Below, piece after piece: positions 12,276-16,374 of a DNA stretch of 64,000 bases (positions within the stretch are counted from its first letter, which is position 1; every line of letters starts with the position of its first letter). The position numbers and the translations under genes were made by a program. Source of the DNA: Stappia sediminis. GTDB taxonomy: Bacteria; Pseudomonadota; Alphaproteobacteria; Rhizobiales; Stappiaceae. Where the stretch lies: assembly GCF_009826895.1 (NCBI RefSeq), contig NZ_WUMV01000002.1, forward strand, positions 675,726 to 739,725, written 5' to 3'. The notes beneath the pieces are model-generated. The model was not told the origin of the DNA, made no database searches, and saw only the letters and a list, made by a program, of their open reading frames with translations.

Positions 12276-12320
12276 AAAAAGACAACGCCCACCGGAGGGA
12301 GGAGAACCGGTGGGCGTTGT
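12276..12320 (-). terminator. Rho-independent terminator ending the first DUF1127/anti-SD unit
   Basis: A perfect 14-bp stem (12282-12295 pairs with 12307-12320) encloses an 11-base loop. Reading the minus strand, the stem is followed by C and then five T residues (12276-12280). The loop on that strand reads TTCTCCTCCCT, so the terminator hairpin itself carries the C-rich anti-Shine-Dalgarno-like motif. Confidence 0.75.
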
Positions 12321-12400
12321 TCCTGAGAGCCGGCCCCTTGGGGGGAAGTAAGAGCCGGCTTTGTGGGCTGCCTTGGCTTGGGAGGGGGAACGCCTCGGCA
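12282..12400 (-). ncRNA. Candidate CcsR/'cuckoo'-type anti-SD RNA, unit 1 (three hairpins)
   Basis: Downstream of the DUF1127 gene at 12494-12643, the minus strand can fold into three successive hairpins: 12369-12400 (4+3 bp with an internal loop; loop contains CCCCCTCCC), 12328-12360 (7 bp; C-rich loop) and 12282-12320 (14 bp; loop TTCTCCTCCCT, then TTTTT). In Rhodobacter sphaeroides, CcsR1-4 RNAs with CCUCCUCCC loops are processed from a DUF1127 mRNA, and related 'cuckoo' RNAs are reported in other alphaproteobacteria. The position and loop sequence here match that description. Expression and processing are inferred. Confidence 0.6.
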
Positions 12401-12493
12401 ACCTCTTCGTGAATTCATATGGTGTTTGTCAGGCGATTTTCCAGATTAATGCAATTGCATAGCAGCCTTGCGAAAATCGCATATCATACCGCG

Positions 12494-12643
12494 TCAGCGG
12501 ATAACGTAGCGGGATGGGCAGCCGGCGGCACGGCAGCCGAGGCCGAGGTCTTCCAGCTCCCGCAATGAAAGGCGGGAAAGCTCGTCTCGCGTCTGGCGGT
12601 ACTTCTTCCAGGTTTGGTAGCTTCGGATAACGGTATCGAGCAT
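12494..12643 (-). CDS. DUF1127 small protein (copy 1)
   Basis: This 49-residue arginine-rich protein begins 'MLDTVIRSYQTWKKYRQTR' and contains the DUF1127 core 'ELSRLSLRELEDLGLG'. The C-terminal half ('CRAAGCPSRYVIR') deviates from the usual 'R.DI' ending. DUF1127 proteins are small, often stress-induced, and have been linked to phosphate/carbon metabolism and RNA turnover. No clear Shine-Dalgarno sequence precedes the ATG (upstream is A-rich). It is about 48% identical by eye to copy 2 at 13018-13167. Confidence 0.85.
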   Translation of the reverse strand: MLDTVIRSYQTWKKYRQTRDELSRLSLRELEDLGLGCRAAGCPSRYVIR

Positions 12644-12888
12644 GGGTTCACTTTTGTTTTGATCGTCTTTTTAGCCGCTTCGGCGTTGCGAAGCGGCTGT
12701 TGTTGTGTGGGGTTTAGCCGGTTCGCCGGCTAAATGGCAGGCCGTCCTCGGCATGACTGTCCTGCGAATGCTGCAGAGCACAATCATGTGAGTGCCGCGT
12801 CATGGAAGGGCGGCCGCCGCGGAGCCGATATTCAGAATTTGGGAGATGCCGGGCAATCGCGGAAGGTATCCCTACCCGAAAATGCGAA
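12644..12888 (-). other. Spacer between the two DUF1127 units, with two strong hairpins
   Basis: No gene is supported here. Two stable inverted repeats are visible: 12673-12682 with 12689-12698 (10 bp, 6-base loop) and 12713-12721 with 12726-12734 (9 bp, four-base loop TTCG on the plus strand). Neither has a T-run on the minus strand, so they may be 5' leader structures of copy 1 or the 3' end of unit 2 rather than ordinary terminators. The remainder shows nothing recognisable. Confidence 0.45.
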
Positions 12889-13004
12889 CGCCCGCCGGTG
12901 GGAGGAGGTACCGGCGGGCGACGCAATGTCCGGCTAGGGCTGGGAGGAGGATGCCTTCGCCGGGAACGTTCAGGGGTATAGGGAGGAGGAATACCCCTTG
13001 AACG
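12889..13004 (-). ncRNA. Candidate CcsR/'cuckoo'-type anti-SD RNA, unit 2 (three hairpins)
   Basis: Directly after the stop of the DUF1127 gene at 13018-13167, the minus strand forms three hairpins: 12967-13004 (12-13 bp with one bulge), 12930-12963 (11 pairs, one mismatch) and 12889-12920 (perfect 11 bp). All three loops contain CCTCCTCCC on the minus strand. That nonamer is complementary to GGGAGGAGG-type Shine-Dalgarno sequences and is the defining loop of R. sphaeroides CcsR RNAs, which also lie downstream of a DUF1127 gene. The repeated loop with unrelated stems argues for selection on the loop. Confidence 0.72.
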
Positions 13005-13017
13005 CGAAGCTCTGAAT

Positions 13018-13167
13018 TCAGATGATCTGCTGGCGGGCGACGAAGCGAATGTCGCCGCGGCCGATGCCGATGTCGTTGAGTTCGCGGTTGGAAAGACGCG
13101 ACAGTTCGTTGACTGTCTGCTGATAGGTCTTCCAGCTGCGGTACTTGGTACGGATCGAATCAAACAT
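13018..13167 (-). CDS. DUF1127 small protein (copy 2)
   Basis: The 49-residue protein starts 'MFDSIRTKYRSWKTYQQTV' and carries the full DUF1127 core 'ELSRLSNRELNDIGIGRGDI'. A GGAGG ribosome-binding site is 7 bases before the ATG. Upstream is an AT-rich segment with a possible TTGCAC...TAAATA promoter, too weak to annotate separately. Its mRNA would run straight into the three-hairpin element at 12889-13004, the arrangement of the R. sphaeroides DUF1127-CcsR operon. Confidence 0.9.
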   Translation of the reverse strand: MFDSIRTKYRSWKTYQQTVNELSRLSNRELNDIGIGRGDIRFVARQQII

Positions 13168-13326
13168 TTACTGCCTCCATCCATCTGGGAGTGGGGCGGC
13201 AGCGGCGTTTCCGTCGTGCCGTCGTGTTGATCCCTATGTATTTAATTCACCCCCTGAAAAAAAGTGCAATTTCTGCACGGCAGCCATGCGCGTTGTGCAA
13301 TGCAATAAATTGAGCTTCATCAAATG

Positions 13327-13443: not shown

Positions 13444-16374
<2,931 letters not shown>

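What the first reader, a model, noticed from the sequence alone, without database searches (positions are those of the whole stretch)
12276..13167. Two tandem DUF1127 genes, each followed by three hairpins with C-rich anti-Shine-Dalgarno-like loops
On the minus strand each 49-residue DUF1127 gene is followed by three stem-loops. All three loops of unit 2 contain CCTCCTCCC; unit 1 has CTCCTCCC, CCCCCTCCC and a C-rich variant. Stems differ while loops are kept, which points to selection on the loop. In Rhodobacter sphaeroides, CcsR1-4 with CCUCCUCCC loops are cut from a DUF1127 mRNA and belong to the alphaproteobacterial 'cuckoo' RNA family. Here the whole module is duplicated head-to-tail, and unit 1 looks diverged. 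The loop is complementary to strong ribosome-binding sites, so the RNAs may mask SD sequences or titrate a protein.
Basis: partly seen in the sequence, partly recalled or inferred. Interest (0 to 1): 0.8.

Follow-up and report, generated by a model that had tools for sequence, protein, structure and literature searches.

The report
Paired RNA hairpin arrays under LsrB
This stretch of a bacterial genome holds two small-protein genes and two sets of three RNA hairpins of a known family, whose exposed tips match the ribosome-binding sites of other genes and would likely switch them off; three sites that fit a redox-sensing regulator (LsrB) sit ahead of them at spacings that recur in related bacteria, so the locus is likely three separately started units of one stress circuit rather than one copied module.

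Summary
On the minus strand, D1 (DUF1127, 13018-13167) is followed by an αr14 small RNA (RF02344, 66.4 bits, over cut-off), and D2 (12494-12643) by a second αr14-type array (56.1 bits, just under cut-off). Stems covary, loops are kept. The family is known: αr14/NfeR1 and 'cuckoo'/CcsR RNAs, often beside short DUF1127 genes. New: it does not look like one module copied head to tail. The printed LsrB/VtlR site (GCAT-N3-TG-N3-T) lies 109 nt before D1, 107 nt before D2 (both perfect) and, with one mismatch, 68 nt before the first loop of the downstream array. With at most one mismatch the spacing recurs in the family: D1 50 of 50, later DUF1127 genes 48 of 57, downstream arrays 16 of 21. In named Hyphomicrobiales 40 of 78 free arrays carry a perfect site, 1 of 78 in a shifted control; Rhodobacterales 0 of 8. 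The genome encodes an LsrB orthologue beside trxB. So the locus likely joins a 3'UTR array and an autonomous NfeR1-type array under one redox regulator. Transcription and binding are untested.

The parts
13277..13289 (-). Box 1: LsrB/VtlR-type site GCATGGCTGCCGT, perfect match to GCAT-N3-TG-N3-T, 109 nt before the D1 start codon
   Evidence: 50 of 50 family loci have a site with at most 1 mismatch 90-140 nt before the D1 domain start
13236..13264 (-). Core promoter-like sequence CTTTTT-N17-ATACAT of D1 (sigma-70-like, weak)
   Evidence: by eye; the simple promoter scan found none
13018..13167 (-). D1, 49-aa DUF1127 protein gene, SD GGAGG
   Evidence: Pfam PF06568 57.5 bits
12884..13010 (-). 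Upstream αr14 array (predicted 3'UTR of D1), hairpins 12972-12998, 12930-12963, 12889-12920, all three loops CCTCCTCCC
   Evidence: RF02344 66.4 bits; covariation
12751..12763 (-). Box 2: LsrB/VtlR-type site (reverse orientation, GCATGACTGTCCT), perfect, 107 nt before the D2 start codon
   Evidence: 48 of 57 second or later family DUF1127 genes have one with at most 1 mismatch 90-140 nt upstream, but only 2 of 57 a perfect one
12494..12643 (-). D2, 49-aa DUF1127 protein gene, diverged C-terminus with two Cys, no SD-like sequence before ATG
   Evidence: Pfam PF06568 38.4 bits
12457..12471 (-). Box 3: LsrB/VtlR-type site, two overlapping one-mismatch matches (12459-12471, 12457-12469), 68 nt before the first loop motif of the downstream array
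   Evidence: 16 of 21 long-gap family arrays
12417..12444 (-). Core promoter-like CTGGAA-N16-CCATAT of the downstream array, near the S. meliloti RpoH1 consensus
   Evidence: consensus read; not tested statistically
12280..12408 (-). Downstream αr14-type array, hairpins 12366-12403, 12328-12360, 12282-12320, loops CCCCCTCCC, C-rich without CCTCC, CTCCTCCC; followed by a T run
   Evidence: RF02344 56.1 bits, E 3e-9, under the gathering score

Best explanation
The locus holds two αr14-type RNA arrays and two DUF1127 genes, predicted to form three separately started transcription units under one redox-responsive LysR regulator, LsrB: D1 with a 3'UTR array, D2, and a free-standing NfeR1-type array. 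Inferred step by step: LsrB binds boxes 1-3 and starts each unit; the D1 mRNA is cut (CcsR-like) to release its hairpins while the second array is a primary transcript with its own terminator; the C-rich loops pair with GGGAGGAGG-type SD sequences, for example of ABC transporter mRNAs, and block translation. In this genome the middle loop of the second array has lost the SD-matching CCTCC core, which likely narrows its targets. Shown: genes, hairpins, covariation, site positions and their recurrence, an LsrB orthologue in the genome. Not shown: transcription, LsrB binding, processing, targets.
For: αr14 matches of both arrays. Covariation. LsrB consensus taken from print, not from these data; at most one mismatch, distances from the domain start or first stem: D1 50 of 50 against 8 and 3 of 50 in shifted windows; later DUF1127 genes 48 of 57 against 4 and 4; downstream arrays 16 of 21 against 4 and 0. 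Perfect site before D1 in 41 of 50 against 49 of 2000 random windows. Named genomes: free arrays (no DUF1127 within 130 nt upstream) of Hyphomicrobiales 40 of 78 perfect (control 1), DUF1127 without adjacent array 22 of 32 (control 0), Rhodobacterales 0 of 8 arrays and 0 of 18 genes; distance to the first loop piles up at 60-79 nt (38 of 97; controls 0 and 3). Seven named loci show DUF1127-box-array, five of them with a perfect box before the gene too: the layout of the D2 half. The LysR gene next to trxB in this genome matches A. tumefaciens LsrB (9HH1) over 298 aa, 435.9 bits, and is followed by a perfect box and an RNA-like element with an ACCTCCTCCC loop. Printed: LsrB activates NfeR1, an αr14 RNA; VtlR activates three DUF1127 genes. 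Targets: GGGAGGAGG-N3-11-ATG 12 times against 2 for the reversed pattern; two of the 12 start ABC transport proteins.
Against: No RNA data. Box 3 has one mismatch. By the perfect consensus the family signal is strong only for D1: 2 of 57 later DUF1127 genes and 5 of 21 gap regions have a perfect site, and only 1 of 40 free family arrays has one 50-89 nt before the first loop. One control for the downstream arrays is not empty (4 of 21; 2 of 3 in this genus). For Hyphomicrobiales DUF1127 genes with a directly adjacent array the perfect site is no commoner than in the control (8 of 19 against 7 of 19), which I put down to DUF1127-DUF1127 operons in Mesorhizobium, where the site is before the first gene. 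With one mismatch allowed, 3 of 17 Rhodobacterales genes with array also have a site (control 1). In g6 the second array lies about 20-25 nt behind D2 and would not need its own start. Family sequences are related, so counts are not independent. Core promoters are weak; the simple scan found none. AbcR (ar15) was not found by its Rfam model.
Confidence: 0.64

Rival explanations
1. One reading: one DUF1127-plus-array module (CIN1/CcsR type) duplicated head to tail; each array is cut from the 3'UTR of its DUF1127 mRNA.
For: Order D-ccc-D-ccc; in g6 the second array follows D2 by about 20-25 nt like a 3'UTR array; DUF1127 genes beside CcsR-like RNAs are a known locus type; D1 and D2 lineages are only weakly separated in the tree.
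Against: Own site (at most one mismatch) before the downstream array in 16 of 21 family loci with a long gap; nearest neighbours of D1 and D2 differ; DUF1127-box-array occurs on its own in seven named loci, among them Rhizobium, Agrobacterium and Shinella.
Confidence: 0.24
2. The downstream array is decaying: lost loop motifs mark a pseudogene of the RNA.
For: Middle loop without CCTCC, first loop CCCCCTCCC; Rfam score below cut-off in the window; in L167 my hairpin finder saw only two of the three hairpins.
Against: Stems stay paired with compensatory changes, loops 1 and 3 keep CCTCCC in window and L169, the T run and the site are kept in L169, and the L169 array is over the Rfam cut-off.
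Confidence: 0.08
3. The hairpins serve the DUF1127 protein or the mRNA itself (protein-binding or stability elements) and not trans silencing.
For: CcaF1 is an RNA-binding DUF1127 protein acting on CcsR RNAs (passages); predicted pairing of upstream-array loops with the D1 leader is -12 to -13 kcal/mol, though the uvrA leader gives -8 to -12 as well.
Against: 75 of 145 triple-loop arrays in the named set have no DUF1127 within 400 nt upstream (5 more lie too near an edge), genus g5 keeps arrays beside uvrA with no DUF1127 (11 of 11 loci), and loop-dependent silencing of ntrB is printed for NfeR1.
Confidence: 0.04

Closest known systems
αr14 family / NfeR1 (Smr14C2, SmelC397) of Sinorhizobium meliloti; Rfam RF02344; RFM SmelA075
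   Same: Three hairpins, CCUCCUCCC loops, variable stems, LsrB-type site upstream; the downstream array has the NfeR1 layout (site, core promoter, array).
   Different: Here two arrays stand side by side with two DUF1127 genes; one loop of the downstream array lacks CCTCC; no NtrC site was looked for.
ccaF1-CcsR1-4 of Rhodobacter sphaeroides (CIN1 locus, cuckoo RNAs)
   Same: Short DUF1127 gene directly followed by anti-SD hairpins (D1 and upstream array).
   Different: ccaF1-CcsR is printed as RpoHI/RpoHII-driven with four CcsR RNAs and a 71-aa protein; here three hairpins, 49-aa proteins and an LsrB-type site, whose perfect form the Rhodobacterales loci lack.
AbcR1/AbcR2 pair (αr15) next to lsrB
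   Same: Tandem anti-SD RNAs with differing core promoters (RpoD with LsrB-type site, and RpoH1).
   Different: Other RNA family; Hfq-binding; not at this locus. A comparable RNA-like element lies beside lsrB elsewhere in this genome.
VtlR regulon of Brucella (abcR2 and three DUF1127 genes)
   Same: The LsrB orthologue drives small DUF1127 genes.
   Different: Adjacent anti-SD arrays are not discussed in the passages I read.

Membership tests
αr14 (RF02344) | Covariance-model score over the gathering cut-off | tested here: met
   Upstream array 66.4 bits against 58.8: met. Downstream array: not met in the window (56.1, E 3e-9), met by its counterpart in L169 (70.8).
αr14 (RF02344) | Three hairpins with CCUCCUCCC unpaired in every loop | tested here: inconclusive
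   Met by the upstream array, not by the downstream one (CCCCCTCCC, C-rich without CCTCC, CTCCTCCC).
αr14 (RF02344) | Expressed as a trans-acting small RNA | not testable with these tools
   No RNA data held.
CIN1 locus (short DUF1127 with CcsR-like RNAs) | Short DUF1127 gene directly upstream of the array, same strand | tested here: met
   D1 stop to first stem about 20 nt; PF06568 57.5 bits. Definition read in passages of PMC10253847; the paper that defined it is not held.
CIN1 locus (short DUF1127 with CcsR-like RNAs) | Hairpins cut from the DUF1127 mRNA by RNase E with help of the protein | not testable with these tools
   Printed for R. sphaeroides (passages).
NfeR1-type autonomous array | LsrB-type site and core promoter directly upstream of the array | tested here: met
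   Box 3, one mismatch, 68 nt before the first loop; at most one mismatch in 16 of 21 family arrays and 64 of 78 named Hyphomicrobiales free arrays (control 14); perfect 40 of 78 (control 1). The core promoter was judged by eye only.
LsrB/VtlR regulon | Genome encodes LsrB, in an operon with trxB | tested here: met
   L244 2981-3877, next to trxB, best solved relative 9HH1 (A. tumefaciens LsrB), 435.9 bits.
LsrB/VtlR regulon | LsrB binds the sites | not testable with these tools
   Needs EMSA or ChIP.
AbcR (αr15, RF02345) | Covariance-model score over cut-off | tested here: not met
   Best match in the genome 17.5 bits against 40.

The most novel reading that the evidence does not exclude
The anti-SD hairpin arrays (αr14/cuckoo) and the small DUF1127 proteins of Hyphomicrobiales are one regulon: an LsrB site at a fixed distance, about 107 nt before DUF1127 start codons and about 65 nt before the first array loop, marks them across the order and is missing in Rhodobacterales, where the same arrays are run by another promoter. 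A redox sensor would thus set a cell-wide dose of 'anti-ribosome-site' loops together with their protein partners, with 3'UTR-type and free arrays as two delivery modes, both present in this window.
Probability: 0.55. Interest if true: 0.66.

Novelty: new variant of a known kind. Interest (0 to 1): 0.5.

Why it matters
DUF1127 proteins are a large family with contested function (RNA binding against sensor-kinase binding, one section read), and the functional work on αr14 RNAs that I saw concerns one member, NfeR1. A shared, precisely placed regulator site would tie the protein genes and the RNA arrays into one predicted redox regulon, gives a rule to look for its members in Hyphomicrobiales genomes, and separates two delivery modes of the same loops that can be tested side by side at one locus.

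Tried and rejected
Recent local duplication: set low; the genus has the tandem in 3 of 3 genomes, 48 of 50 fetched family loci with DUF1127 have two or more, and D1/D2 have different nearest neighbours (49 residues, weak). Pseudogene for the downstream array: set low. AbcR by Rfam model: not found; the element beside lsrB came instead as a weak ar14 match, 26.5 bits. Of the other weak ar14 matches in the genome, L008 looks like a terminator; L010 to L013 were not pursued. The three other DUF1127 genes of the genome have no run of loops behind them and no perfect site in the 300 nt before them. My own 17-base site consensus (TGCATGGCTGCCATGCA) was written after looking at the data; its shuffle test (D1 50 of 50 at 12 or more against 101 of 1000 shuffles; gap 20 of 21 against 34 of 420; D2+ 27 of 57 against 71 of 1140) is therefore biased and I rest on the printed consensus. 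RpoH-like core of the downstream array: seen in g1 and g7, not in g3/g4, by eye; kept as a hint. In one search the split by gap length put two g6 first arrays (L190, L201) in the long-gap set. Rows dropped: 11 g5 loci have no DUF1127 hit and are not in the D counts; of 87 family genomes I fetched stretches of 59 besides the window's own; arrays with a D gap under 85 nt are not in the 21; A1 used 23 of 45 and A2 16 of 18 arrays; Pfam was run on 9 of the 12 target candidates, two of which had no family. The match tables are capped ('more matches are not listed'), so stretches were picked from the listed part. One unclassified-alpha group (5 genes with array: 1 perfect, 4 with at most one mismatch) is in neither order.

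Full report
WHAT IS THERE. On the minus strand, downstream of uvrA (13444-16374, Pfam), lie D1 (13018-13167), an array of three hairpins, D2 (12494-12643) and a second array followed by a T run. Both genes are DUF1127 (57.5 and 38.4 bits, cut-off 23.3). Rfam names the first array ar14, 66.4 bits; in a search of the own genome the second array scores 56.1 bits, E 3e-9, just under the cut-off of 58.8. The exact loop CCTCCTCCC occurs four times on the minus strand and never on the plus strand of the window, three times in the first array. The second array reads CCCCCTCCC, a C-rich loop without CCTCC, and CTCCTCCC.

IT IS A KNOWN KIND. Passages of PMC10746234 describe αr14 RNAs as three hairpins, each with CCUCCUCCC as an anti-SD motif, stems variable, and report that the S. 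meliloti member NfeR1 silences ntrB through these motifs. PMC3927594 passages describe the same loops for RFM SmelA075 and SmelA099. [quoted passage not shown] The founding cuckoo, CcaF1 and CcsR papers are not held; the CcsR loop sequence itself I know only from the finding.

THE TANDEM IS OLD. All 3 genomes of the genus have it. In the family 85 of 87 genomes have an ar14 match (61 of 87 over the cut-off) and 87 of 87 a DUF1127 match. I fetched 60 stretches from 59 further genomes, picked from the listed matches; with the window that makes 61 loci, 50 with DUF1127 beside the array, 48 of these with two or more. D-ccc-D is the usual start of the order in g1, g3, g4, g6 and g7; loops follow the last DUF1127 gene in the tandem loci of g1, g3, g4 and g7 (in two g7 loci only after 800-1000 nt), while in g6 13 of 24 loci have two loop motifs there, 3 one and 8 none. 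g2 has variants such as four arrays between two DUF1127 genes, and the 11 g5 loci have arrays beside uvrA with no DUF1127. Genus g6 is close to Labrenzia sp. OB1 and AO1-B records (86.7% L221 to L091, 95.5% L225 to L149); Roseibium, the name of the L143 record that several g6 loci match best, is in Stappiaceae, Hyphomicrobiales, so the window's family is inferred to be Stappiaceae. D1 of this genus is nearest to D1 of g7, D2 to D2/D3 of g7: probably two lineages older than the genera, on a short protein and with mean distances (D1-D1 0.79, D2-D2 1.00, D1-D2 1.06) that separate them only weakly.

SELECTION ON LOOP AND STEM. In 45 short-gap arrays each hairpin has CTCCTCCC in 45 of 45 loops, with 25-27 distinct 5' arms; own arms pair at 0.88-1.00 of positions, arms swapped between loci at 0.48-0.70 (hairpins were chosen for pairing and for C-rich loops, so the swap is the control for pairing only). 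On alignments made without structure, 15 of 20 (23 arrays) and 18 of 28 (16 arrays) consensus pairs show changes on both sides with the pair kept; the first hairpin of A1 is not in its consensus fold. The middle loop of the second array lacks CTCCTCCC in the three genus genomes (L169 keeps CCTCC, the window and L167 do not) while the aligned g3, g4 and g7 arrays keep it.

THREE REGULATOR SITES. PMC12595884 passages give a VtlR site and say that VtlR drives three DUF1127 genes and abcR2. PMC8844928 passages give the LsrB consensus GCAT-N3-TG-N3-T, and PMC10746234 passages place an LsrB site at -72 to -57 of NfeR1, supported by EMSA. With that printed consensus the window has a perfect site at 13277-13289 (109 nt before D1), a perfect site at 12751-12763 (107 nt before D2), and one-mismatch matches at 12457-12471, 68 nt before the first loop of the second array; other one-mismatch matches in the scanned 1.3 kb are at 12777-12789 and 12640-12652. 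Family, at most one mismatch, distance from the domain start or first stem: D1 50 of 50 (shifted windows 8 and 3 of 50), D2 and later 48 of 57 (4 and 4), downstream arrays with a gap of 85 nt or more 16 of 21 (4 and 0). A perfect site is in the D1 position in 41 of 50 loci against 49 of 2000 random windows. By the perfect consensus the rest of the family does poorly: 2 of 57 later genes (the window's D2 and L178), 5 of 21 gap regions, 1 of 40 free arrays at 50-89 nt. I report this against the reading.

BEYOND THE FAMILY. Free arrays (no DUF1127 within 130 nt upstream) of Hyphomicrobiales: perfect site in 40 of 78 (control 1), at most one mismatch in 64 of 78 (control 14). DUF1127 genes without adjacent array: 22 of 32 perfect (control 0). 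Rhodobacterales: 0 of 8 arrays and 0 of 18 genes perfect; at most one mismatch 1 of 8 (control 2) and 3 of 18 (control 2). DUF1127 genes with an adjacent array in Hyphomicrobiales: 8 of 19, control 7 of 19; here Mesorhizobium has two DUF1127 genes in a row, site before the first. PMC11975290 passages say LsrB occurs only in Rhizobiales, in an operon with trxB, which fits the split. Two layouts recur: site-~100-D-~40-array, and site-~63-array; seven named loci have D-site-array, five of them with a perfect site before D as well. The window carries the first layout, then the last.

THE REGULATOR IS PRESENT. Next to the only trxB over cut-off lies a 298-aa LysR gene (L244 2981-3877) whose best solved relative is 9HH1, A. 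tumefaciens LsrB (435.9 bits, full length). Downstream of it are a perfect site and an RNA-like element with an ACCTCCTCCC loop and a hairpin with T run, the place of AbcR2 beside vtlR and AbcR1/2 beside lsrB in print, although the ar15 model does not find it.

HOW IT LIKELY WORKS. LsrB would start D1 with its 3'UTR array, D2, and the second array. The first array would be released by cutting, the second made directly; its core CTGGAA-N16-CCATAT is near the RpoH1 consensus, a hint only. Loops would cover SD sequences: GGGAGGAGG before ATG occurs 12 times in the genome against 2 for the reversed pattern; two of the 12 start ABC transporter parts (SBP_bac_5, BPD_transp_1), with predicted duplexes of -16 to -22 kcal/mol against about -7 to -10 for shuffles of one of these leaders; the D1 leader gives -8.5 to -13, the uvrA leader -8 to -12, the D2 leader -0.8 to -3. 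All of this is prediction.

NOVELTY. My searches listed no title or abstract that joins LsrB sites, DUF1127 genes and αr14 arrays, and the passages I read do not; three papers hold both 'LsrB' and 'DUF1127', two of them holding one of the words only in the reference list as far as the passages show. The library holds open-licence papers only and key papers are missing. The parts are known; the joint layout and the order-wide site rule are the addition.

Noticed in passing
L244:2630-2823 (own genome, contig C10): An RNA-like element with an ACCTCCTCCC hairpin loop, a perfect LsrB-type site and a terminator-like hairpin directly downstream of the lsrB orthologue; AbcR position, but not found by the AbcR model.
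   Followed up: partly
L179-L189 (genus g5): Arrays beside uvrA (11 of 11 loci) with no DUF1127 gene next to them; the RNA has outlived, or never had, the protein gene there.
   Followed up: partly
L170 (g2), L201, L202, L207 (g6): Three or four αr14-type arrays in a row between DUF1127 genes: array number varies strongly within the family.
   Followed up: no
window 12494-12643: D2 has no SD-like sequence and an unusual C-terminus with two Cys (GCRAAGC), shared with L169 but not L167.
   Followed up: no
window 12672-12699: Strong hairpin between the two halves, scored as a terminator for the plus strand; partly changed in L169, role unknown.
   Followed up: no
L072, L075, L079, L106: Named rhizobial loci with arrays and DUF1127 genes in a row, several with their own perfect site: expanded versions of the same cluster.
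   Followed up: partly
L210, L220 (g7): The array after D2 is 800-1000 nt away from the gene, with further sequence in between that I did not examine.
   Followed up: no
L053, L097, L123, L133, L161, L162, L163: Seven of 120 pattern stretches are outside Alphaproteobacteria by title, with no site and no DUF1127 near; nature not examined.
   Followed up: no
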